Origin: Flavobacteriales bacterium
GTDB taxonomy: Bacteria; Bacteroidota; Bacteroidia; Flavobacteriales_D; Sanyastnellaceae
DNA length: 64,000 bases
Assembly: GCA_947462725.1 (NCBI GenBank)
Contig: CANHPZ010000002.1
Location: 1-64,000, forward strand
Direction: 5' to 3'
The notes under the pieces are model-generated. The model was given only the letters and a program-made list of their open reading frames with translations. It was not told the origin of the DNA and did no database searches. Every line of letters starts with the position of its first letter. Within the stretch, counting starts at the first letter, position 1. Made by a program: the position numbers and the translations under genes. Below, in pieces: positions 3,272 to 53,267 of this stretch.

Positions 3272-4858
3272 TTAATTTTTAAAATCACTCACAACATCGA
3301 CACGCAAGCGGTTAGGCGTGTTCGCTACTTCCCAGGCTGTATGAAAAACTAAACGCGTTATGCGTTCCATTTTTTTGTAGCCAATTTTCTTTGCATCATC
3401 ACCCGGCTTGTGATAATCTTCATGCACACCGCTAAAATAAAAAATCACCGGAATATTGTGTTTCGCAAAATTGTAATGATCACTTCGGTAATAAAAACGA
3501 TTTGGATCATCGGGTTTATTGTAAGTGTAATCCAGACTCAACTTGCTATAAGATTGGTTGCAACTCTCGGAAATTTTATGGAGATCCGTACTCAATTTGT
3601 CAGAGCCTATCAAATAGACATAATTCGAATCTGTGTGCTCCGGATCAATTCTTCCAATCATGTCAATATTCAGATCACAAACCGTGTTTTCCAGCGGAAA
3701 TACGGGATGATCAGAATACCATTCACTGCCCAACAAACCCTTTTCTTCTCCGCTTACATGGAGTATTAAGATGCTTCGCTTTGGACCATGTCCTTCTCTC
3801 TTAGCCAGATTAAACGCTTCCGCTATTTCCATTGCTGCAGAAGTTCCACTGGCATCATCATCAGCGCCGTTATGAATTTCACCATTGATGATTCCAACGT
3901 GATCATAGTGTGCTGAAACAACAACAACCTCTTCTTTCAATTGTGGATCTGAACCTTCAATAAAAGCAAGTACGTTCTCCGCTTTGATTCGATCTATTTT
4001 CTGTTCCACATGAAAAAACAAGTCTTGTGAAACTACTACCGGCTTTTGTCTTTTTCCCTTATTGATTCTTGACTGCATCCCTTCAACTGTTTTACCGGAT
4101 GCTTGCATTATTTGATTGGCCATAGCGGGTGAAATATATATGATCGGTATGTGTTCGTCCTCTTTCACCTCCTTATCTCTTTCCAACCTCATGGGTGATT
4201 GTTCCAACCAATAACGCACTCGCTTCATGTACATGTTATAATTGGTATTCACAACCAACAAGATCTGGGCACCCATTTTCTCCGCCGCTTGCGCCTTTAG
4301 CAACACATCATCATTCCAATCCGAAGTTTCATTGCTTCCCGTGATCCTGCTCCGACCCTTGGCATCCATGGGTTCACCATTCAAACACATCACCACAGGT
4401 CTGATCAAATCAGATCGAAAACCCTTGTAATCGTTATGTCGTTCATCACGAATTCCATAACCCACAAATACAATTTGACTTGCGCTCAAATCCTGAGCAG
4501 GCATTCCGAAAAAATAGAAATCATCCAAGAAGCTCTTGCGCTCAGACCCTATCGTTGCCAACGATCCCATATTACTCTCTCGTCTGAGTGGATAGGATTG
4601 AAACCAACTCCCACTAACAACAGGACTTATCTTCAATGATTCATAGTATGTAGAAATATACTGTGCTGCCTTCTTCTGCCCAGGCATTCCTGTTTCCCTT
4701 CCCTCAAATTCATCCGATGCAAGGGTAAATAAATGCTTCGCTATGTGATCAGCCTTAATTGTCGAAGCATAGCGCATAGCCATTGTATCAGCTGATTGCG
4801 TTAAAAAATGATTCACGTGAAAAACACAGATAACCAAAATTATGTACCTCATACACAT
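3272..4858 (-). CDS. M28 family metallopeptidase (aminopeptidase)
   Basis: VVVSAHYDHVG, NGADDDASGT, HVSGEEKGLLGS, DHYNFAKHNIPVIFYFSG. Confidence 0.9.
   Translation of the reverse strand: MCMRYIILVICVFHVNHFLTQSADTMAMRYASTIKADHIAKHLFTLASDEFEGRETGMPGQKKAAQYISTYYESLKISPVVSGSWFQSYPLRRESNMGSLATIGSERKSFLDDFYFFGMPAQDLSASQIVFVGYGIRDERHNDYKGFRSDLIRPVVMCLNGEPMDAKGRSRITGSNETSDWNDDVLLKAQAAEKMGAQILLVVNTNYNMYMKRVRYWLEQSPMRLERDKEVKEDEHIPIIYISPAMANQIMQASGKTVEGMQSRINKGKRQKPVVVSQDLFFHVEQKIDRIKAENVLAFIEGSDPQLKEEVVVVSAHYDHVGIINGEIHNGADDDASGTSAAMEIAEAFNLAKREGHGPKRSILILHVSGEEKGLLGSEWYSDHPVFPLENTVCDLNIDMIGRIDPEHTDSNYVYLIGSDKLSTDLHKISESCNQSYSKLSLDYTYNKPDDPNRFYYRSDHYNFAKHNIPVIFYFSGVHEDYHKPGDDAKKIGYKKMERITRLVFHTAWEVANTPNRLRVDVVSDFKN
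4809..4824 (+). promoter_or_regulatory. parS-like site TGATTCACGTGAAAAA (14/16 to TGTTTCACGTGAAACA)
   Basis: Direct read, inside start of M28 peptidase CDS. Confidence 0.45.
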
Positions 4859-5277
4859 CCTATTTTATTGACTCGCGTTTCATGTCGTCCACCTTCAAAT
4901 GGTGTTTCAAAAAAAGTCTTTGTTATTGCAATTGCTTGCTCCTCACTTACAAACCGCGCAGGTATACAAAGAATATTGGCGTCGTTATGCTGACGCGCTA
5001 AGCGTGCTATCTCTTCCGTCCAACATATTGCTGCGCGTATTCCTGCATATTTATTTGCAGTCATTGCTACACCATTTGCAGAACCGCAAATCAATACACC
5101 CATCCTCCCATTTTGAAGAACCGATTGTGCTACAGGATGGGCATAATCCGGGTAGTCAACACTGTCTTTGGAGTATGCGCCATGATCAACCCAAGTGATA
5201 TTTTCACTTACAACTGCGAGTAGTCTTTCCTTCAATTCGAATCCAGCATGATCCGATCCTATATCTATAGTATTCAT
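4849..5277 (-). CDS. rpiB: Ribose-5-phosphate isomerase B
   Basis: GSDHAGFELKE..., GVLICGSANGVAMTANKYAGIRAA, RQHNDANILCIPARF. Confidence 0.92.
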   Translation of the reverse strand: MNTIDIGSDHAGFELKERLLAVVSENITWVDHGAYSKDSVDYPDYAHPVAQSVLQNGRMGVLICGSANGVAMTANKYAGIRAAICWTEEIARLARQHNDANILCIPARFVSEEQAIAITKTFFETPFEGGRHETRVNKIGCV

Positions 5278-5373
5278 ATGCAGTGTTTTTGCGTTGTCAA
5301 AAATACCACGCTAGACATAAGAGTCTGTTTTTGAATTTAAAATGATAGTTATCACCATAGCTACTGACTTTTT

Positions 5374-5382
5374 TGTGAATTA
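5374..5382 (-). promoter_or_regulatory. DnaA-box-like TAATTCACA (1 mismatch to TTATNCACA)
   Basis: + strand TGTGAATTA. Confidence 0.35.
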
Positions 5383-5507
5383 GCGTTGATGAATACACAA
5401 CAACTTTATTTGTTCTGAGCACATACATCATGTCATATGACAAAAGGAAACACCATCAAAGACAAAGTTGCTGCTTAATTTCACCGAGCTATGCACGAGC
5501 TCATCCA

Positions 5508-5516
5508 CTATTCACA
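5508..5516 (+). promoter_or_regulatory. DnaA-box-like CTATTCACA (1 mismatch)
   Basis: Direct read. Confidence 0.4.
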
Positions 5517-5535
5517 ACATTCATCAACAGCCATA

Positions 5536-5544
5536 TTATCCACT
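5536..5544 (+). promoter_or_regulatory. DnaA-box-like TTATCCACT (1 mismatch to TTATCCACA)
   Basis: Direct read. Confidence 0.45.
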
Positions 5545-5562
5545 ACCTAACTTATACCACCA

Positions 5563-5571
5563 TGTGAACAA
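5563..5571 (-). promoter_or_regulatory. DnaA-box-like TTGTTCACA (1 mismatch)
   Basis: + strand TGTGAACAA. Confidence 0.4.
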
Positions 5572-5700
5572 CAACATTAAACGACTAATTATCAGTCACA
5601 CCTACGTTGCATAAACTGTTTAAAAACTCTACCCAAACTTGAATAACGTCTGAAGTCAAGCATATCATACCCCACTTTCTAACAGAATGAACACCTCCTA

Positions 5701-5742
5701 TAATCTATAACTAACTATTTAAATAAATAGATAATTATATAC
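5701..5742. other. AT-rich tract (candidate DNA unwinding element) with inverted repeat CTATTTA-AA-TAAATAG (5715-5730)
   Basis: About 90% A+T over ~41 nt; perfect 7-bp inverted repeat. Confidence 0.5.
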
Positions 5743-5802
5743 TCATGAAAAGAAAGAACGAAAATTATGAATTGAAGATGCGGTGAGCAATAGTTTTGCC
5801 GA

Positions 5803-7323
5803 GTGATGAAAATGAAATTACTGTTCACGTTTTGGATGTTGGTTGTTTCGCTTGTTGCGGTTGCACAACCGGAATGGGTCCAATACCGCTTTGAAAGTGG
5901 TGTGGTCAGTAGCGAAGGTACAATGCGAAATGGAAGACCGGATGGCTATTGGAAAACGTATTACCCATCAGGTAAATTGAAAACAGAAGGCAGTAGGTTG
6001 AATTTTCAATTGGACTCCACGTGGAATTTCTTCAGGGAGGATGGAACGCTGGAGCGAGTTATTAATTACAAGGAGGACATCAAGCAAGGATTGGAAGAGA
6101 TTCACGATGATAAGGGAAGATTAATTGAAGAATATACCAATCAGAACAATCTACGCAATGGACCGGCTCGCTCGTATTACGATTCCGGTCAATTGAAGAA
6201 GTCATTTCAATTCATCAACAACAAAGAGGAAGGGAAGGCAATAGAATATGAACGTGATGGCCGAATCATTACTCTTATCACGTACAAGAGTGGTTTCATT
6301 TATACCGAAGAACGAATAAACCGCTATGATTTGCAAGGCAGGAGAACCGGTGTTTGGCGTGATTTATACGAAGATGGCTCCATACAGCTTGATGGCAACT
6401 GGGCTCGAGGAATGAAAAATGGGGTATTCAAGTTTTATAATCGAAAGGGAGAACTGGAAAAGTTGGAGCGTTACGAAGACGATGTGCTTGTAATTGATGA
6501 AGCGGCTACTGCTATCCTGGATATTAGGAAGGAATATCATGCGAATGGAAGTATCAAAGAATTGGGTACATATCGAGAGGGAAAGCGCCAAGGTAACTTT
6601 CGGTTGTACGATGAATTGGGTAAGGAAAACGGAGGACAGCTCTACGATAATGATATCCTGCTAGGTGAAGGTATGATTGATAGTTTGGGTAGAAGAATTG
6701 GAGATTGGAAGTTGTACTACCCCAATGGATCAACACGAGCAAAGGGAAAGTATGTTTCAGGTATGAAGGAAGGACCCTGGCAGTATTTTTTTATCGATGG
6801 CAAAACAGAGCAAATTGGAACGTATAAAAATGATTTGCCCACAGGTGCTTGGAAATGGTATTATCTCAATGGGGCTTTGCACCGCGATGAAATATATCGG
6901 AATGGCAAGGAAGACGGAATGGCGATAGAGTATGATTCATTAGGTGTAGTCATTAACGAAGGAGAGTATACATCAGGTGCTAAAAATGGTCCATGGAAAT
7001 TGACAATTAATGACCACCGTGAAGAAGGCGCTTATTTGGATGGTGAGCGCGATGGTGTTTGGGTTTGGTATCACACCAGCGGAAAAAAATCTTTTGAGGG
7101 AACCTTTCAATCCGGCATTCCTGTGGATCGACATAAGTATTGGTATGCCAATGGTCAAGTTCAAATGACCGGAAAATATGAGGCTGGTGAAATGAACGAA
7201 CGTTGGGATTATTACGATCCGAATGGTTTACTTTCGTTACAGTTGGATTATAAGGAAGGTCAGGTTATTAGAATTAACGGGCAGAAGATACGATTGCCGG
7301 AAAAAAGTGAATCGGAGCAGTAA
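5803..7323 (+). CDS. Secreted MORN-repeat-variant protein (YwqK-like)
   Basis: Signal peptide MKLLFTFWMLVVSLVAVAQ; many ~23-aa GxWKxYYPNGxLKxEG repeats. Confidence 0.85.
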   Translation: MMKMKLLFTFWMLVVSLVAVAQPEWVQYRFESGVVSSEGTMRNGRPDGYWKTYYPSGKLKTEGSRLNFQLDSTWNFFREDGTLERVINYKEDIKQGLEEIHDDKGRLIEEYTNQNNLRNGPARSYYDSGQLKKSFQFINNKEEGKAIEYERDGRIITLITYKSGFIYTEERINRYDLQGRRTGVWRDLYEDGSIQLDGNWARGMKNGVFKFYNRKGELEKLERYEDDVLVIDEAATAILDIRKEYHANGSIKELGTYREGKRQGNFRLYDELGKENGGQLYDNDILLGEGMIDSLGRRIGDWKLYYPNGSTRAKGKYVSGMKEGPWQYFFIDGKTEQIGTYKNDLPTGAWKWYYLNGALHRDEIYRNGKEDGMAIEYDSLGVVINEGEYTSGAKNGPWKLTINDHREEGAYLDGERDGVWVWYHTSGKKSFEGTFQSGIPVDRHKYWYANGQVQMTGKYEAGEMNERWDYYDPNGLLSLQLDYKEGQVIRINGQKIRLPEKSESEQ

Positions 7324-10318: not shown

Positions 10319-13300
10319 TTATCGCAACAAGGTTACACTGCCTTTGGTATTGATTGGTTCGGGCCTGCCTAGAACAATCATGTCTACCGACCAAACATAA
10401 ACCCCATCTTCGACGGGTTGGTTTTTGAATGTACCATCCCAACCCTCACCAATGGCTTGTGTTGAGAACACTTCAATACCCCAGCGATTGTAAATTCGGA
10501 AAGTGTAAAGCGTAATATTCGATCCGGTGATTACGGGCAAAAACAATTCGTTATGGTTGTTGTTGTCCGGTGAGAATGCGCTTGGAATGTAGAACTGGTA
10601 ACCGTTGCTTGCCTCTATGCTTTGCACATATTCTGCGGTGCAACCAAATGCATTGGTTACCACTTGTGTGATTTCATACACGCCATCTTCTGCGTAGGTG
10701 TGCTGCGGAATTTCTGAACCTTCAGTATTATCACCCCAGTTGTAGCCGGTAAGCGTAACATCAGGGCTTGTTTGCGGAGTAACAACAATAGTTGGCGTGC
10801 TTGTGGACTGGTCTACCATGGCGCTGAATCCGGCGGTTGGAGAGGGATAAACAATCAACGGCTCATTCATAGAAGCTCGGGTCATACAACCACGATTAGA
10901 GCGCACAACCACATCAAGATTATAAGCTCCGATATCGCTTAAGGTGAAATGTGCGGGATTAGTATTACTAACCGCTTCATTGTCTAAAAACCATTCATAT
11001 GATTCAACGATTGAGGGCTGCGCAATGGCGGATTCACAAAGCACCCCAATAGATTGATTGTTGCAGAACTCAGTGTTGTCATTCAGAATCTTAGCAATGG
11101 GAAGCGGATAAACCTCAACAGAGTCAATGGTAACGTTTCTGCATCCATAGTTGCTTACTGCCGTGAATGTATAGTTGAATACACCGGCAGAATCAAACAA
11201 GTATTCGGTATCGAATCCCACTGATGTGAAGGGGTACCCCTCAATGCTCCAAGTGGTGGATGTAATCCCGCCATAGGCAAGCGCAACATCAGCACTAAAT
11301 TCAGTTTGCAAACCCAGGCAGTGGTCTTCTGTGGTAAATGCGATTTGTGGCATTGGGCGCACGTTGATTTGTTGGTGTGATACACCAGAACAACCATGAG
11401 CTGTGGTGATATGCAAGGCAACGGTGGCTGCGCCGTTGTTATTGAAGACATAGTATGAGGTGTCGTCGTCGATCCACTGATTTCCTTCAGCAAACCACAA
11501 CCAATTGACAATGGAATCGTTTCCGAAAGCGCTTTCATCAACCAATAGTGCGCTATCTTTTTCACATACATTAGTCATGCTGAATGAGGCGTTTGGCGTG
11601 TCATACACCATGAATTCGAAAGGTTGCTGAGCTGCGCATCCGTAATTGCTGGCTACATCCACAAGGCCATTGTGATGTCCGCCTTGCTCGAAAATTAGCC
11701 CATTCAGATTTGGGGTTGAGCCGGCCGCTGCACCATCCAATTGCCATTCGAATTCTGTGATTTGTCCTTCAACCACAGTAGCGTTTGCATTGATTTGAAC
11801 CTCTTGGCCGGTGCAGAAATGGGTTGAAACAATGTTGAGCTGCGGTTTCGGGCGCACCACAAACTCTGTAGATGATGACGCATAGCATCCATGACTATCG
11901 TAAAAATGCAGCACGACCGCATAGGGTGTTGGAGAATAGACGGGCATAAAAACACCGGTAATTGCGCCGTCGACGGTATAATGCGATTGCACCATGCTAT
12001 CCAAAACAAACGCATAGTCTTGATCTCCGTCGCAAAATGTTTGTTGAATCAAGCTTTCCACAACAGGAAGGGGCAATATGAAAACACTATCAATAGCGGA
12101 ACCCGTGCAGCCGGCATCATCCGTATAGCGATACTCTACTCGCTGAAACGAATTGGGTGTATGATTGCTGTTGAAAAAGCCAGCTTCAACAGAATTTACA
12201 AAGTAGTGGCCCGTTACGCCGGCGGGGTTTCCACCCAGCATGGCCACCAACCCGGAGTTGAAACAAATAGAGTCAACAAATTGCAATGAGACTGTTGGTT
12301 TAGGCAGGACGTTGATTCGAAGAGTATCTGTGCTGATACAATCCGAATAATTAGAGGTAATCACAATGTCGTAAGTGCTTTCAGCGGTCATGATAGCGAC
12401 ATTGGGTTGAGCGGCGGTCGACAATGGTTGTGAGGAGTTCCAAGAAATATTCTCGGCATTGAGGCTTGTAATTTCAATCAGGTCGCCCTCACAAATGTGC
12501 TCGGGAACACTGTAATGCGCTTGATAATTTTCTACCACAATTGGGGTAACACAGTGGATATAAACATCACAGCCATTTTGATCCGTCATGATTATCGAAG
12601 GACAATATTCACCGGGTTCAGTATACGTGTGCGCCGTAGTTGTTCCACCAAAGGGATCTCCCTGTCCATCATTAAAATCCCAGAAGTATTGAAACGAATT
12701 GTCGTTCAAATTGAACGCCTCAAACGATACGTCAAATGGTGCGCAACTTGCGCTGTCTAGGCTTTGATGAAACGGACCAACACTGGAGGAGTAATTCAAT
12801 ACATCGGGTATCGAGAGAGTATCCGCACAACCGTTTTGAGCGACTGTAATCATTACGGCGTCAAACACACCGATGGGATAGGTGTGTGCAACATGATATC
12901 CCAACCCTGATTGTGAATCACCAAAGTTCCAGTGCGTTTGCGCAACACTTCCCGCTGTGGTGTTATCAAACGAAACGGTGTAAAGGCAATTATTGATTAC
13001 AGGAGTTACTGCGGCTTGTGCATCTGGGCTAAGCACCTCCACTAGAGTTGGATGACAATACACGCTGCTGCAACCAATAGCATTCGTTGCGGTTAAACAC
13101 ACCTGATACGATCCGTTTTCGGGGTAGGCGTGCTGTGCGGTTTCGCCCAAATAGGCGCTAGAGGTGTCGCCGAAACTCCAGTTGAATTGAGTCCCTTGCG
13201 GCACAATGGAGGTGTTGCTAAACACGACCACTTCACCCCGACATACTTGAGGATTGGTGATTTGGAATTGTGCTTGTGGAGGCAGCGTTGTGTTTATTGC

Positions 13301-15967
13301 AATGGTTCGTGAAGAAGAACACCCATCGGCGTTACTGGCGGTTAGAGTTGCTGAAATACCCGATGCGTAATTGAATGGCGCCGCAAAAGCGTGCTCAGTA
13401 GCTGATAAGGAGCTTGATGCACCATCACTGAAGGCCCAGTTAAAAGTTGAGGCCTGTGGTGATGTTGCTTCAAAGTTTACCACCACAGAACCATTAGCAC
13501 AGGGGTCTGTAACAGCATAGGTGAAATCGGAAAATTCACCACCCTGCAGCACAGTTACAGCGTTGAGGTATGTGGTATCGGCAGTGCAACCCTGATAGTT
13601 TGTGGCAGACACCTGAATGTCGTAGGTGCCAGCGACTTCAAACAAAAGTGTTGGCCATTCGAATTGCATTGGATCATTGGAGTACGTCGTTTCCGATTGA
13701 CCGTTGTGGGTATACACTATCGTCCAAGGCGCAACCGAAGGGTTATAAACACGATCTACAACCACTTGATCTCCGTTTTCGACATTGAGTTCCCAATGCA
13801 CATTTCGCTTAATGTTTTCGATGTGCACCTCTAGTGGTGAGCACCCTACTTCGGGCGATATGGCGATTCGTGCACTTGGCGATGTGATGATGATGTTTTC
13901 TGTTTTACTATCGGAACATGGATCACCATTTTTATGGGCTTCGAGGGTAACCGTGTATTGACCGGGTTCATCGTAGTGGTGAGTAGGATTGGCTACGTTA
14001 ATCACAAGCGGTGATCCATCACCGAAATCCCAAACCAGCGAATCTCCCTCTATCGATTCGTTGGTGAATTGAACACCATTTTCTGCACAAGTCATTTCAA
14101 AAGAGAAAAGAGCTAATGGTGGAACCACATGAATGTAATCCTCGCGGGTTGCACTCACATTACATGCACCGTTTAGAATGGCTAATGAAACATCGTAGAA
14201 CCCCGTGTCTTCAAACATTCTAGAGTAGCAACTATCTTCTTCTTGCATGGTTTGTGGCCCGCTGCCATCATGAAAATCCCAGATGTAGGTGTTTCCGGGT
14301 TGATAGTCGATGCAGAACTCAAAGCTGATACCCGCGCAACCCAGTGTTTGATTTACTGTGAAACCAGGAAGTGCCGGTGCAAGAACAGTAAGAGCGGTGT
14401 CGCTGGTATCAGTGGCTGTGCATCCTTCGGCGGTGGTAACTGATAAGACTGGAAAAAACTCCCCAGATTCGATAAATACAAAATCAGGGTTGGCTCCTGT
14501 TGCGTCTTCTATGCCATCTCCATTGAAATCCCATGAATAAGAAACAATAGTACCGCCCGAGCTTAAAACAATATCAGTAACCTCCATGGTTTCACCGGTG
14601 CAAATAGCTTCTTCGTGCTCAAAGGAGAGGCTTGGCGTTTCGATGTGAATGTAATTATTGCGATTGCGATTGCGAATGCAGCCGTTCGCGGTGATGCGCC
14701 TTAACTTGATATCATAATAGCCTGGTGCTGTGAATAATTGAGTGAGGTTAACATCGTTAGAAACCTCTTCATTATTGACAAACCATGTGAAGGCACCATT
14801 GATTTGACCGGCAGCACCATTTGAAAAGTGAACTTCAAGAGGAACAGAACACCCTGAAGTAATATCTGCGGTGAAATCAATAGTGGGGTTGGGCATTACT
14901 GTGAGCGTGTCTGTAAAGGATACTGAGCAAGCCGCACCAAAATGGGCAACCATGCGAATTATAGGTGTTCCTGCGGCGCTAAAGGTGAATGACCCATTAA
15001 AACCCGTCCCATCCGTTGTTCCATCACCATTGTAATCCCATTCAACAGAAGTGGGAGCGGGGGTAGTGATGTTGGTGAATTGCAGGGTTTGACCAGCACA
15101 CGTGGTATCTACCGTGCTTGTGAAGCCAACTGTTGGCTGACTGGATATGGAAACATCACGACAAGTGGTGTCTGTGCAGCCAATCGTGTTTTCTACAGCA
15201 AGACACACACTGTAGGTTGCACTTTCATTAAAAGCAATCGAGGCAACGGCTGTGTTTTGGTTTGATTCAACGGTGTTGACCGACCATGTGTAGTTGGAGT
15301 AATCAACTTGAGAAGCGCTGAAATTAATTGTGGTTGGCAGGCTGCAGGTGCTTTGGCTTCCAACGGTGAAATTGGCTTGAGGATGTTGTGAAGACGCTTG
15401 AATGAGTTGGGGCATGCTGATGGATGAAAAACAACCATTGGCATCAGCAATCGACAACACGGGAGTGAAGCTTCCCGCTTGCGCATAACAGTGATTTGGG
15501 TTTGTTTCTTCAGAAAATGATCCATCACCAAAATCCCAACTCCACTCCACAATCGGTCCTGATCCAGGGGTTGATGCGTCTGCAAACTCAGCACAAAAGG
15601 GCAAGCACCCGGCAGAGTCGGTTAGCGTTATCGCTGCAGAAGGTTTGGCAAAAACAGTGATGAAATCATCGAAAACCTGAGCAGGACCGGATGAAAGGGT
15701 TACGCTGATATCATAGGTGCCTGGTGTGTTGAAAATGGCCACATACGGGTTGGTGTTTGATTGCAGCGCGACTCCGTTGGGGCCAGTAACTGTCCATGCG
15801 GTTGAACCGACCACAGAACCATCACTCATCGACGCGGTAATTATGACCCCATGGGGCGCACAACCCGCTGGTTGATTGCTCTGCAACGTCAATACTTGTG
15901 CAGATAATTCTCTCGGAGCAAGAACGATCAGCGCAATCGAAAGAAGGTATGTTAGGGTTTTTATCAA
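10319..15967 (-). CDS. 1882-aa multi-PKD-domain secreted adhesin-like protein with T9SS type B (gliding motility-associated) C-terminal domain
   Basis: Signal peptide; numerous WxFGDG/WDFNDG PKD motifs; C-terminus FYIPSAFSPDNNNHNELFLPV...YTFRIYNRWGIEVF...GWDGTFKNQPVEDGVYVW. Confidence 0.92.
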   Translation of the reverse strand: MIKTLTYLLSIALIVLAPRELSAQVLTLQSNQPAGCAPHGVIITASMSDGSVVGSTAWTVTGPNGVALQSNTNPYVAIFNTPGTYDISVTLSSGPAQVFDDFITVFAKPSAAITLTDSAGCLPFCAEFADASTPGSGPIVEWSWDFGDGSFSEETNPNHCYAQAGSFTPVLSIADANGCFSSISMPQLIQASSQHPQANFTVGSQSTCSLPTTINFSASQVDYSNYTWSVNTVESNQNTAVASIAFNESATYSVCLAVENTIGCTDTTCRDVSISSQPTVGFTSTVDTTCAGQTLQFTNITTPAPTSVEWDYNGDGTTDGTGFNGSFTFSAAGTPIIRMVAHFGAACSVSFTDTLTVMPNPTIDFTADITSGCSVPLEVHFSNGAAGQINGAFTWFVNNEEVSNDVNLTQLFTAPGYYDIKLRRITANGCIRNRNRNNYIHIETPSLSFEHEEAICTGETMEVTDIVLSSGGTIVSYSWDFNGDGIEDATGANPDFVFIESGEFFPVLSVTTAEGCTATDTSDTALTVLAPALPGFTVNQTLGCAGISFEFCIDYQPGNTYIWDFHDGSGPQTMQEEDSCYSRMFEDTGFYDVSLAILNGACNVSATREDYIHVVPPLALFSFEMTCAENGVQFTNESIEGDSLVWDFGDGSPLVINVANPTHHYDEPGQYTVTLEAHKNGDPCSDSKTENIIITSPSARIAISPEVGCSPLEVHIENIKRNVHWELNVENGDQVVVDRVYNPSVAPWTIVYTHNGQSETTYSNDPMQFEWPTLLFEVAGTYDIQVSATNYQGCTADTTYLNAVTVLQGGEFSDFTYAVTDPCANGSVVVNFEATSPQASTFNWAFSDGASSSLSATEHAFAAPFNYASGISATLTASNADGCSSSRTIAINTTLPPQAQFQITNPQVCRGEVVVFSNTSIVPQGTQFNWSFGDTSSAYLGETAQHAYPENGSYQVCLTATNAIGCSSVYCHPTLVEVLSPDAQAAVTPVINNCLYTVSFDNTTAGSVAQTHWNFGDSQSGLGYHVAHTYPIGVFDAVMITVAQNGCADTLSIPDVLNYSSSVGPFHQSLDSASCAPFDVSFEAFNLNDNSFQYFWDFNDGQGDPFGGTTTAHTYTEPGEYCPSIIMTDQNGCDVYIHCVTPIVVENYQAHYSVPEHICEGDLIEITSLNAENISWNSSQPLSTAAQPNVAIMTAESTYDIVITSNYSDCISTDTLRINVLPKPTVSLQFVDSICFNSGLVAMLGGNPAGVTGHYFVNSVEAGFFNSNHTPNSFQRVEYRYTDDAGCTGSAIDSVFILPLPVVESLIQQTFCDGDQDYAFVLDSMVQSHYTVDGAITGVFMPVYSPTPYAVVLHFYDSHGCYASSSTEFVVRPKPQLNIVSTHFCTGQEVQINANATVVEGQITEFEWQLDGAAAGSTPNLNGLIFEQGGHHNGLVDVASNYGCAAQQPFEFMVYDTPNASFSMTNVCEKDSALLVDESAFGNDSIVNWLWFAEGNQWIDDDTSYYVFNNNGAATVALHITTAHGCSGVSHQQINVRPMPQIAFTTEDHCLGLQTEFSADVALAYGGITSTTWSIEGYPFTSVGFDTEYLFDSAGVFNYTFTAVSNYGCRNVTIDSVEVYPLPIAKILNDNTEFCNNQSIGVLCESAIAQPSIVESYEWFLDNEAVSNTNPAHFTLSDIGAYNLDVVVRSNRGCMTRASMNEPLIVYPSPTAGFSAMVDQSTSTPTIVVTPQTSPDVTLTGYNWGDNTEGSEIPQHTYAEDGVYEITQVVTNAFGCTAEYVQSIEASNGYQFYIPSAFSPDNNNHNELFLPVITGSNITLYTFRIYNRWGIEVFSTQAIGEGWDGTFKNQPVEDGVYVWSVDMIVLGRPEPINTKGSVTLLR

Positions 15968-26694: not shown

Positions 26695-26717
26695 AAAGGG
26701 GCGTATGCCCCTTTTTT
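26695..26717. terminator. Rho-independent, bidirectional-looking terminator AAAGGGGC-GTAT-GCCCCTTTTTT
   Basis: Perfect stem with 4-nt loop followed by T tract, between convergent genes. Confidence 0.8.
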
Positions 26718-28590
26718 AACGCCCTATTTTCATCAATAAGATCGAGATGTCTGCGGGATTAACTCCGCTAATCCGGGATGCTTGACCAAGTGTTTCAGGT
26801 TGGATGGCGGATAGTTTTTGTCTAGCTTCCGTGCTGATATTGCCTACGGCATTGAAATCAAATCCAGATGGAAATCGAATATGTTCCAGGCGAAGTAGTT
26901 TTTCAGCCATGTCTCTTTCTTTTGCTAGGTAACCGCTATATTTTATCTCAATTTCGGCTTGTTCCAAGATTTCGTCCATTATTTCTTGAGTGTTTTCGAG
27001 GCATTCAGCAATGGATGGATACAAGGGGGTAAAATCAGACAATCGCACCTCGGGCCGAGTGAGAACACCGGATAGCTTTACTTTTTGGCTTATTGGGGCG
27101 CTATTGCGATTTTGGAGCATTCCGTTCACCATTTCCGGTTCAATAGATAGTTTTTCGAGGTGCTTTATGAGTTTGTGCTTTCCGGCTAGCTTTTGTTCCA
27201 CGTGAAAAACGCGATCTGATTTCGCCAAACCGATTTGCTGCGCTCGTGGAGTTAACCGTTCATCGGCATTGTCTTGCCGCAATAATGTCCGAAATTCAGC
27301 TCTGCTAGTGAACATACGATAGGGCTCGTCAGTGCTTTTGGTAATCAGATCGTCGATTAGAACACCGATGTAGGCTTCATTTCGGTGCAATACGAACTCT
27401 TCTTTTTCTTGTATCCAATGTGCGGCATTAATACCCGCAATTAGACCTTGGCACGCTGCCTCTTCGTAGCCAGTGGTTCCGTTGATTTGTCCGGCCAGAA
27501 ACAATCCTGGTATTGCCTTGCTCTCGAGTGTGTGCTTGAGTTGATCGGGTGGAAAGTAATCGTATTCAATCGCATACCCTGGTCGAAACATTTTAGCGTT
27601 TTCAAAACCTGGAATATGTCTTATTGCCTTGAGTTGTATGTCATCTGGAAGACTGGTTGAAAAGCCGTTGACATAAATTTCTATGGTTTGCCATCCTTCA
27701 GGTTCTACGAATATTTGGTGCCTATCTTTATCAGCAAAGCGAGTGATTTTGTCTTCAATTGACGGACAGTATCGTGGACCGACGCCCTGTATGCGCCCAG
27801 CAAACATGGGGCTTTGCTCAAAACCCGTTGCTAATATGTCGTGTACTGTCGAATTTGTGTAGGTAATCCAGCAAGAGCGCTGTTGTGTTAATGGTTTGCT
27901 GGATGGAAGATAAGAGAATTTGGAAGGGACAGCATCACCAAGTTGCTCTTCCATTTTGCCATAATTGAGAGACCTACCATCGATTCTTGGTGGGGTACCG
28001 GTTTTCATGCGGCCACTTCTCAACCCTAATTCGTTGAGCTGTTCTGTAAGGCCCTCGGCCCTTTTCTCTCCCATTCTGCCGCCACCAAACTGTTTCTCGC
28101 CGATGTGGATTACCCCGTTGAGAAAGGTTCCGCTGGTTATAATTACGGAACGGCAATGGAAAGTAACTCCCATACCGGTAACAACCCCGGTGATTTGATT
28201 ATTCTCGATAATTACTGAGCTTACCATGTCTTGCCAGAAGTCAACTAAAGGTGTAGCTTCGAGCATATTGCGCCATTCTTCTGCGAAGCGCATTCTATCG
28301 TTTTGAGTGCGTGGGCTCCACATGGCTGGCCCTTTGGATTTGTTCAACATTCTGAATTGAATTGCTGAACGATCAGACACAATTCCAGAATAGCCACCGA
28401 GTGCATCGATTTCACGTATAATTTGACCCTTGGCAATACCTCCCATGGCTGGGTTACAACTCATCTGGCCAATCTTGTTCATATCCATGGTAATCAATAA
28501 GGTACGTGCACCTAAATTGGCCGCTGCCGAAGCTGCTTCGTTGCCGGCATGTCCAGCACCAACAACAATAATATCGTAAGAATTTTCCAT
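26716..28590 (-). CDS. mnmG: tRNA uridine-5-carboxymethylaminomethyl modification enzyme MnmG
   Basis: [46 protein letters not shown]. Confidence 0.95.
27194..27209 (+). promoter_or_regulatory. parS-like site TGTTCCACGTGAAAAA (15/16 to TGTTCCACGTGAAACA)
   Basis: Direct read, inside mnmG. Confidence 0.6.
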
Positions 28591-50849: not shown

Positions 50850-53207
50850 TTAACGGATGATTGTGATTTTTCGCACCTCATCAGCTGTGCCGAGTGGAGT
50901 AGAAACGTAGACCAAATAGACTCCAGTGGCTGGTTTGCTGCCATCCGAAAGAAGTCCGTCCCAAACGGCACGACCGCCCTCACTTTCGGTTTCAAACAAG
51001 ATGTTGCCTTGTATGTCTGTTATCTTAACACTTGTGTTGTAGGCCAAACCATCGATGGTAATGTTGCCTGTATATTCAGGACGCACGGGATTGGGAAAAA
51101 CCCTCACGTTCGACATTTCGTTGTCGAAGTTGGTGGCAGTAGAGAAGAATCCGACAACACCATTTTCAGTTGCGAAGAATACCTCACCGTTGGAATGGTT
51201 AATGGCTATATCGTAAACCGTGTTGGAAAGGAGTGGACTGTTTTCTTCGGTGAAGTGATAAATCTGACGCAGACCATCATCACTGAGCAAATACACTCCG
51301 CTGTTTTGAGTGCCAATCCATTTTCTATTGCTACCGTCAATTTCGATGCAGTTGATGCTTTCAGTTTCAAGCAGGATCTGCGTGTTGCCGTCTTGTTCGA
51401 TGAGAATTTGCTCAGAGTCGAAGTTATCGCCTTCGAATATCGAAGCGGGATTATAGAATATAGATAATCCACTGGAAGTGCCCACCCAAACCTCTTCGTC
51501 GAGATCTTCTTCCATGCAGAGCACGTCGTTTGACGCTAGTTTTCCGTTTCCTTCCGCATCGGTCAAAAGGTTGAAATTATCATCGGAAAAAACAGGGAGC
51601 GTTCCATTGTTATTGAGTACCAGAAGCCCTTTACCAACTACGTTGGCCCAAATGAATCCATTGTTTCCAATGAGGATATCACCAACCTTTTCGTCGTTGC
51701 CGAGCAGCAAGCCAAAGTCGTAGTCATAGAATTTTCCATCTCGATCGAGCGCGTGAATTGCGCGGTCGGTGAGGCTATTTGTGCACCACAATATGCCTTC
51801 GTCGGAAAACGCAACACTGGCTACTTGTGTGCGCACGGCTGATGGATCTGCAGTGGTTGCATCAGGGCCTGTGGCGGCGCTGCCGTTTGTGGGTTTTAAG
51901 CGCCCGGTAGTGGTGTTCACGCGTACTAAACCATCGTCCCATGTGGCGGCATAGACCACCGAGTTGTCCAATGGATCAACAGCAACATCCATGACATCTG
52001 TTACGAAGTTGCTGCTGTTGTTGAATCCGGCTCCCGCGCTGTAGATTGTATCGGATGAAATGTGTTTCCATTGGTCATCAACGAAACCGGATATTCCATC
52101 TACATTAAATTGCGGACCCCAGTCGGCACGCACGCCGCCGTGTGCAATCCAAATATTGTTGTTGTAAGCTCCAATTCGTCGGCAGGAAGCAGAGAATGGG
52201 CCATCGGGTTCAATGGTGGCGTCGGCTGTACCCTCGGCATTGCGCGACCAGAATAAGCCAGCATATTTGTCGGCAGCCCAGATGTAGCCGTATTCACCAA
52301 CGATGCAGTTGTAAATATTGGGAAGGCGACCCGCGATGAGGGAGCGCTGCACGGGAAAGTCGAAGTTAAAGTGACAGAACCAATAGCCGTAATCGCCGGA
52401 AACGGTAAGCCATTCACCATTAGACCATATTTGGTTGATGCGGAAATTAACCAAAGGGTATCGTGCCGTCCAATCTGTGGCGCCGACGGATTTACTCCAG
52501 ATGGTGTCGGCTTGTGTGCCGGGGATATGCAAAACCATTTCGTTATTGAAGAACTCAATGTGTTTCACAATAGAATCTCCGGGAATAATTCCGAAGGGCA
52601 GCCAGTTTTGGAAGTTGGCCAAAAATGGGTTGTTGATGTAGGCCTTTTGCAAACCCTCTTCAGTGGCAGCGTAGAGTGTGTCGTTGAATATCGCCACATC
52701 ATTCACCCTAACCGGTCCTCCGTTGGGTCCGATGAAATAGGTTTCTTTCACTTCTTTGCGAATCATATCCAGCACTACGACGCCAAAACCGGTGCTGAGG
52801 TAAACGCGATTACCGAAAGGCAGGATGTCGTAAATGGCTTTATCGCCAATGATGGTGCTGAATTTAATATCAGGGATGTTGTAGCTTTTTTCTCCATCGA
52901 GTAAATCGATGTTTCCATTGGAGTAACCGATGATGACCAGGCCTGTAGCGGGATCAACCTCCAGGGCAGAAATACCGATGTCGGTAAGTTGTGTGGCTTT
53001 GGAGTATCGGATGATTTCGCCGCCGTCTTTGTTGTAAGAAAAAACAGCATAAGGAGTGGCCGCATAGACAATATGGTTCCATTCACACACATCGATGCAC
53101 TTGTTGTAGGGCAGGTGATCGCGCCATGTGCCGATGCTGAATTGCGCATGCACAAAAGAGCCAAAAGAGCACAGTGCAAAGAGGATAAAGTAGCAGAGGT
53201 GTTTCAT
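50850..53207 (-). CDS. porZ: PorZ-like two-component-regulator propeller protein with T9SS type A C-terminal domain
   Basis: Signal peptide, propeller repeats (VWVGTSSGLSIFYNP, KWIGTQNSGVYLL), C-terminus VRVFPNPVRPEYTGNITIDGL...GVYLVYV. Confidence 0.8.
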   Translation of the reverse strand: MKHLCYFILFALCSFGSFVHAQFSIGTWRDHLPYNKCIDVCEWNHIVYAATPYAVFSYNKDGGEIIRYSKATQLTDIGISALEVDPATGLVIIGYSNGNIDLLDGEKSYNIPDIKFSTIIGDKAIYDILPFGNRVYLSTGFGVVVLDMIRKEVKETYFIGPNGGPVRVNDVAIFNDTLYAATEEGLQKAYINNPFLANFQNWLPFGIIPGDSIVKHIEFFNNEMVLHIPGTQADTIWSKSVGATDWTARYPLVNFRINQIWSNGEWLTVSGDYGYWFCHFNFDFPVQRSLIAGRLPNIYNCIVGEYGYIWAADKYAGLFWSRNAEGTADATIEPDGPFSASCRRIGAYNNNIWIAHGGVRADWGPQFNVDGISGFVDDQWKHISSDTIYSAGAGFNNSSNFVTDVMDVAVDPLDNSVVYAATWDDGLVRVNTTTGRLKPTNGSAATGPDATTADPSAVRTQVASVAFSDEGILWCTNSLTDRAIHALDRDGKFYDYDFGLLLGNDEKVGDILIGNNGFIWANVVGKGLLVLNNNGTLPVFSDDNFNLLTDAEGNGKLASNDVLCMEEDLDEEVWVGTSSGLSIFYNPASIFEGDNFDSEQILIEQDGNTQILLETESINCIEIDGSNRKWIGTQNSGVYLLSDDGLRQIYHFTEENSPLLSNTVYDIAINHSNGEVFFATENGVVGFFSTATNFDNEMSNVRVFPNPVRPEYTGNITIDGLAYNTSVKITDIQGNILFETESEGGRAVWDGLLSDGSKPATGVYLVYVSTPLGTADEVRKITIIR

Positions 53208-53267
53208 GATAAGCGGCATGGCTAACGCAGCGAATTTGCAAATGTTATGGGCGATCAAAAAATAAGC

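What the first reader, a model, noticed from the sequence alone, without database searches (positions are those of the whole stretch)
5278..5802. Candidate chromosomal replication origin between rpiB and a MORN-repeat gene, away from dnaA
Seen: a 525 bp non-coding gap between divergent genes. Within 5374-5571 there are four 9-mers one mismatch from TTATNCACA (TAATTCACA -, CTATTCACA +, TTATCCACT +, TTGTTCACA -). They are followed by a ~90% AT tract (5701-5742) containing CTATTTA-AA-TAAATAG. G/C composition flips at that tract: hand count C68:G24 over 5461-5700 versus C25:G52 over 5761-5940. The flip seems to persist outside the gap. The + strand gene to the left (1473-2678) has C>G in most sampled lines. 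The minus gene 10319-15967 has G>C on the + strand in several sampled lines. Established: bacterial oriC typically combines DnaA boxes, an AT-rich unwinding element and a negative-to-positive GC-skew transition. Inference: this is oriC. No dnaA is in the window, so the origin would lie apart from dnaA.
Basis: partly seen in the sequence, partly recalled or inferred. Interest (0 to 1): 0.8.

Follow-up and report, generated by a model that had tools for sequence, protein, structure and literature searches.

The report
Chromosome replication origin beside rpiB
The gap next to the rpiB gene is very probably where this bacterium starts copying its chromosome; close relatives use the same spot, far from the usual initiator gene, which is already known to be common in this phylum, so it is a well-supported but not revolutionary find.

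Summary
The 525-bp gap is very probably oriC. The described features are real, but the DnaA-box count alone is weak (4 one-mismatch boxes, shuffle P about 0.04) and the palindrome is not conserved. Stronger evidence: (1) the window's cumulative GC-skew minimum is at 5744, inside the AT tract, and third-codon skew flips there largely regardless of gene strand. (2) In three sampled complete relatives the chromosome-wide skew switches at or near the rpiB gap, with dnaA 0.46-1.65 Mb away (Flavobacterium covae: minimum 989,292, rpiB 990,047, dnaA 1,886,966). (3) In 9 of 14 other genomes the local minimum lies 0.26-0.72 kb upstream of rpiB. (4) Genus members share a footprint: conserved box blocks and CTATAACTAACTATTTAAA, one copy per genome. 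(5) A box / C-rich / CTA-repeat / TTTAAA module resembling the BUS (DnaA-trio) system recurs about 400-550 bp upstream of rpiB in many relatives. In these origins TTATNAACA is enriched more than TTATNCACA, and DnaA residue 435 (E. coli numbering) is Ala instead of Thr; a causal link is unproven. Origins away from dnaA are already reported as common in Bacteroidetes, so this is a new member of a known kind. No experiment shows initiation here.

The parts
4849..5277 (-). rpiB, ribose-5-phosphate isomerase B; left border of the origin, transcribed away from it
   Evidence: Pfam LacAB_rpiB E 1.6e-53
5278..5805 (.). candidate oriC (intergenic gap)
   Evidence: cumulative skew minimum at 5744; same gap holds the skew switch in complete relatives; genus footprint
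5374..5382 (-). DnaA-box-like TAATTCACA inside the conserved block TTTTTTGTGAA
   Evidence: one mismatch to TTATNCACA; block conserved in genus
5404..5413 (+). conserved block around ACTTTATTTG, role unknown
   Evidence: genus footprint
5508..5516 (+). DnaA-box-like CTATTCACA, core of the box array
5521..5529 (+). DnaA-box-like TCATCAACA (TTATNAACA type), conserved core TCAACA
5536..5544 (+). DnaA-box-like TTATCCACT; not conserved in the genus
5563..5571 (-). DnaA-box-like TTGTTCACA; relatives G006 and G001 have exact TTATTCACA / TTATACACA at this place
5685..5698 (+). degenerate box GAATGAACA (2 mismatches to TTATNAACA) followed by the C-rich spacer CCTCC; first half of the BUS-like module
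   Evidence: structured pattern hit at 5690, the only one in the window
5698..5723 (+). CTA-rich tract CTATAATCTATAACTAACTATTTAAA; opposite strand reads 3'-GAT repeats with register slips (DnaA-trio-like)
   Evidence: CTATAACTAACTATTTAAA at 5705-5723, once in this genome and beside rpiB in 7 of 8 genus members
5699..5745 (.). AT-rich putative unwinding element; skew minimum at 5744
5791..5799 (+). TAGTTTTGC, matches the Bacteroidetes -7 promoter motif TAnnTTTG (consensus recalled from memory); likely promoter element of the MORN gene
   Evidence: conserved in genus
5806..7323 (+). MORN-repeat protein gene; right border, transcribed away from the origin
   Evidence: Pfam MORN_2 E 1.4e-30; homologues beside rpiB in nearly all family members

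Best explanation
The gap is the chromosomal replication origin of a Flavobacteriales-type Bacteroidota bacterium. DnaA, encoded far away, would bind the box array (about 5374-5571) and a degenerate box at 5685. It would then assemble from that box across the C-rich spacer onto single-stranded 3'-GAT-like repeats (opposite strand of 5698-5723) and open the AT-rich tract up to about 5745, where helicase loads and two forks leave, one along rpiB and one along the MORN gene. Shown: sequence anatomy, conservation, and the skew switch at this gap here and in relatives. Inferred: DnaA binding, unwinding, initiation.
For: Window cumulative skew minimum at 5744; largely strand-independent third-position skew. 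Sampled complete relatives: G018 (same family) skew mostly negative from 1.8 to 3.63 Mb and mostly positive after 3.65 Mb, with a local minimum at 3,633 kb in the rpiB gap and the deepest at 3,647 kb, dnaA at 1.98 Mb; G038 minimum about 570 bp upstream of rpiB, dnaA at 462 kb. F. covae minimum 989,292, rpiB 990,047, dnaA 1,886,966, and the only cluster of at least 4 TTATNAACA within 650 bp in the 400 kb sampled lies there (5 boxes, Poisson P 2e-7). In 9 of 14 other genomes the local minimum is 261-718 bp upstream of rpiB, in one 1.7 kb. Genus footprint and a 19-mer beside rpiB in 7 of 8 genus members. BUS-like module pattern: one hit in the 64-kb window, one in 800 kb of G018, one in 400 kb of G038, all in the rpiB gap.
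Against: No marker-frequency, binding or plasmid-replication data. The own genome is in 238 contigs and only 5.3 kb lies left of the gap, so its global skew could not be drawn. Relatives' chromosomes were sampled (10-20%), not read whole. In 4 of 14 genomes the local minimum is 8-14 kb on the rpiB side, and in G018 the deepest point is 14 kb beyond the gap. Box count alone is barely above chance. The CTA repeats of this genus slip out of the three-base register of true DnaA-trios. The module pattern was designed after seeing the sequences, gave one hit in 113 kb of other own-genome contigs, and is unspecific in AT-rich F. covae.
Confidence: 0.94

Rival explanations
1. An ordinary divergent promoter region: the skew flip only reflects genes on opposite strands, and the conserved blocks are promoters and regulator sites of rpiB and the MORN gene.
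For: The genes are divergent; a conserved TAGTTTTGC promoter-like motif sits before the MORN gene.
Against: Skew at third codon positions mostly keeps its sign for genes on both strands over 58 kb. The switch is chromosome-wide in complete relatives. The conserved blocks are box-like and AT-rich, and the module recurs at the same place across families.
Confidence: 0.03
2. The true origin lies near, but a few to 15 kb away; rpiB is only a close marker.
For: The local minimum is displaced 8-14 kb in 4 of 14 genomes, and the deepest point in G018 is 14 kb off.
Against: 9 of 14 genomes and the window itself put the minimum within 0.72 kb upstream of rpiB, and the box cluster of F. covae coincides with the minimum.
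Confidence: 0.03
3. A DnaA titration or regulatory cluster (datA/DARS-like) and not the start site.
For: Box arrays also occur at such sites (general knowledge).
Against: Such sites are not expected to carry the chromosome-wide skew minimum together with a box / C-rich / CTA-repeat / AT-rich unwinding layout.
Confidence: 0.01

Closest known systems
Predicted oriC regions of Bacteroidetes far from dnaA (DoriC / Ori-Finder; e.g. Prevotella intermedia, PMC4755523; Elizabethkingia meningoseptica, PMC8994065)
   Same: At a skew transition, several DnaA boxes, far from dnaA; PMC4755523 states this is common in the phylum.
   Different: The flanking genes rpiB and MORN, and the TTATNAACA preference, were not found described in the papers that could be searched.
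BUS, basal origin unwinding system of Bacillus subtilis and others (PMC8287927)
   Same: Box, short spacer, then 3'-GAT-like repeats and an AT-rich tract in a fixed order. Relative G026 reads CTA TTA CTA TTA CTA.
   Different: In this genus the repeat slips (CTA at spacings 7, 6, 4) and the adjoining box has 2 mismatches.
E. coli oriC (gidA-mioC)
   Same: Also separated from dnaA; here gidA/mnmG lies about 21 kb to the right.
   Different: Different flanking genes and a different preferred box.

Membership tests
bacterial oriC | Negative-to-positive GC-skew transition, chromosome-wide | tested here: met
   Window minimum 5744; sampled complete relatives. Own whole chromosome not assembled, so indirect for this genome.
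bacterial oriC | Cluster of DnaA boxes | tested here: met
   4 one-mismatch boxes, P 0.04 alone; conservation and strong enrichment across relatives
bacterial oriC | AT-rich unwinding element next to the boxes | tested here: met
   Most AT-rich 42-mer of the window starts at 5699-5700
bacterial oriC | Replication starts there in the cell | not testable with these tools
   Needs marker frequency or an oriC plasmid
BUS (DnaA-trio) origin | At least three 3'-NAN-5' trinucleotides within 16 bp of a DnaA box with at most 2 mismatches (search rule of PMC8287927) | tested here: inconclusive
   Box GAATGAACA (2 mismatches to the TTATNAACA form), 4-5 bp spacer, GAT-like units with broken register; clean in relatives such as G026
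dnaA-linked origin | dnaA adjacent to the origin | tested here: not met
   Own dnaA on contig C169; 0.46-1.65 Mb away in complete relatives

The most novel reading that the evidence does not exclude
Flavobacteriales origins, this one included, use a shifted DnaA box, TTATNAACA more than TTATNCACA, and the shift goes with a Thr-to-Ala change at DnaA residue 435 (E. coli numbering), a residue at which another substitution (T435M) makes E. coli DnaA defective in box binding (PMC5742627). The rpiB/MORN neighbourhood would then be a lineage-wide origin landmark.
Probability: 0.35. Interest if true: 0.5.

Novelty: new member of a known kind. Interest (0 to 1): 0.38.

Why it matters
It gives a gene landmark (the rpiB / MORN gap) for the origin in this family and many Flavobacteriales. 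That would allow growth-rate estimates (peak-to-trough) and oriC vectors even where only fragmented metagenome assemblies exist and where origin finders that look for dnaA and E. coli-type boxes may fail. The box preference makes DnaA-DNA recognition directly testable.

Tried and rejected
Profile search (nhmmer) with an outgroup-trained module: too short and AT-rich, no hit in the window gap. Significance from box counts alone: rejected as weak (P 0.04). The palindrome CTATTTA-AA-TAAATAG as a functional hairpin: rejected; right arm not conserved and folding z only -1.7. The genus 19-mer across the order: genus-specific. A clean correlation of residue 435 with box type: not established; 29 of 30 best-scoring loci sampled from the wider phylum have Ser, and loci without a strong skew flip, which include other orders, also favour TTATNAACA. 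Literature search for rpiB with oriC: no listed paper was evidently about a Bacteroidota origin; subscription papers and DoriC entries themselves were not searchable.

Full report
OBSERVATION. The gap, the four 9-mers, the AT tract and the base counts are as described, with small corrections: G is 53 not 52 in 5761-5940, AT over 5701-5742 is 88%, and no box is exact. Four one-mismatch boxes against 1.24 expected by dinucleotide shuffling gives P 0.0375, so the boxes alone would not carry the claim. In a scan of 605 windows of 525 bp only those overlapping this gap reach four. The cumulative GC-skew minimum of the 64-kb window is at 5744.

IS THE SKEW FLIP MORE THAN GENE DIRECTION? Divergent genes alone can give a local flip. 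At third codon positions, however, the + strand skew is mostly positive for genes of both orientations over the 58 kb to the right (minus gene 10319-15967, +0.29; minus genes between 48866 and 56099, +0.29 to +0.49). To the left it is negative for four of five genes, including the + strand gene 1365-2678 at -0.33.

WHERE IS THE MINIMUM IN COMPLETE CHROMOSOMES? The window is contig C2 (65,919 bp) of a 238-contig, 2.53-Mb assembly. Its own dnaA is on contig C169. Relatives in one contig were therefore sampled. G018 (same family, 4.098 Mb): skew mostly negative from 1.8 to 3.63 Mb and mostly positive from about 3.65 Mb round to about 1 Mb; rpiB at 3.633 Mb, dnaA at 1.983 Mb, nearer the terminus. 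A local minimum lies at 3,633 kb, in the rpiB gap; the deepest point of the contiguous 360 kb is 14 kb further on. G038 (same order, 3.980 Mb): minimum at contig position about 315, rpiB starting at 886, dnaA at 462 kb. Flavobacterium covae CP067379 (3.40 Mb): minimum at 989,292, rpiB at 990,047, dnaA at 1,886,966.

OTHER GENOMES. In 14 further genomes the minimum of the 17-40 kb around rpiB lies 261-718 bp upstream of the rpiB start in nine (G003, G012, G017, G039, G042, G058, G045, G015, G030), 1.7 kb upstream in one (G044), and 8-14 kb on the rpiB side in four (G049, G050, G054, G057). A negative-to-positive flip appears in every same-family locus measured on 1-2 kb flanks, while many loci from elsewhere in the phylum lack it. 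rpiB is thus an origin marker in this lineage and not across the phylum.

FOOTPRINT. Aligning the gap from genus members (rpiB protein identity 63-70%) shows islands of conservation in otherwise freely diverging DNA: TTATCA and TTTTTTGTGAA around 5350-5380, ACTTTATTTG at 5404-5413, a box array within 5491-5560, the tract at 5690-5725, and a promoter-like AATAGTTTTGC just before the MORN gene. CTATAACTAACTATTTAAA (up to 2 mismatches) occurs once in each of 7 of 8 genus members, always beside rpiB; the eighth has a more divergent variant there. The MORN gene sits on the other side of the gap in nearly all family members.

A MODULE SHARED ACROSS FAMILIES. About 400-550 bp upstream of rpiB many relatives have ...AACA - C-rich - CTA repeats - ...TTTAAA. 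In G026 it reads AATTAACA GCC CTA TTA CTA TTA CTA TTT, i.e. 3'-GAT AAT GAT AAT GAT-5' on the other strand, a close match to the DnaA-trio layout of the basal unwinding system (PMC8287927). A structured pattern of this module hits once in the window (5690), once in 800 kb of G018 and once in 400 kb of G038, each time in the rpiB gap. It also hits once in 113 kb of other contigs of this genome, and it is unspecific in AT-rich F. covae. The pattern was written after seeing the sequences, so its presence in the gaps is not independent; its rarity elsewhere is.

BOX TYPE. In rpiB gaps of skew-flip loci outside the family, TTATNAACA occurs 34 times against 3.1 expected and TTATNCACA 9 against 1.2; in the rest of the family 13 against 1.35 and 6 against 0.78. 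In F. covae the only cluster of at least four TTATNAACA within 650 bp in 400 kb sampled is at the rpiB gap. In the Flavobacteriales DnaA proteins examined, the recognition helix reads DHATV where E. coli has DHTTV, i.e. residue 435 is Ala (the E. coli sequence was entered from memory and matched PDB 1j1v). In E. coli, T435M is defective in box binding and the helix from residue 434 reads the TnCACA part of the box (PMC5742627). A causal link is only an inference: other loci sampled from the phylum mostly have Ser there, and loci without a strong flip also favour TTATNAACA.

KNOWN OR NEW. Bacteroidetes origins far from dnaA are reported as common (PMC4755523; example PMC8994065). The present case is therefore a new member of a known kind. 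The rpiB/MORN landmark and the box preference were not found in the papers that could be searched.

MECHANISM. Shown: anatomy, conservation, skew. Inferred: DnaA loads on the array and on the degenerate box at 5685, extends onto the GAT-like strand, melts 5699-5745, and forks leave in both directions, co-oriented with rpiB and the MORN gene. No experiment was available.

Noticed in passing
window 3272-5277; L238:9996-12032: rpiB and the M28 peptidase gene overlap by 10 bp in the window. In G015 they appear fused into one 678-aa frame, and nine same-family genomes show rpiB in frames of 655-734 aa.
   Followed up: partly
window 26716-28590: gidA/mnmG, an origin-proximal indicator gene in Gammaproteobacteria, lies about 21 kb from the proposed origin.
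   Followed up: no
window 5791-5799: TAGTTTTGC, a few bases before the MORN start codon, fits a Bacteroidetes -7 promoter element, suggesting a nearly leaderless transcript beginning beside the unwinding tract.
   Followed up: partly
window 5404-5413: Conserved ACTTTATTTG block between the first box and the box array; no known binding site recognised.
   Followed up: no
window 10319-15967 and 50850-53258: Giant PKD-repeat protein with a CHU_C type IX secretion signal, and a PorZ-like type IX secretion component.
   Followed up: no
DnaA loci L119-L130, L241-L270: DnaA residue 435 (E. coli numbering) is Ala in the Flavobacteriales sampled, Ser in most other loci sampled from the phylum, Thr in one.
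   Followed up: partly
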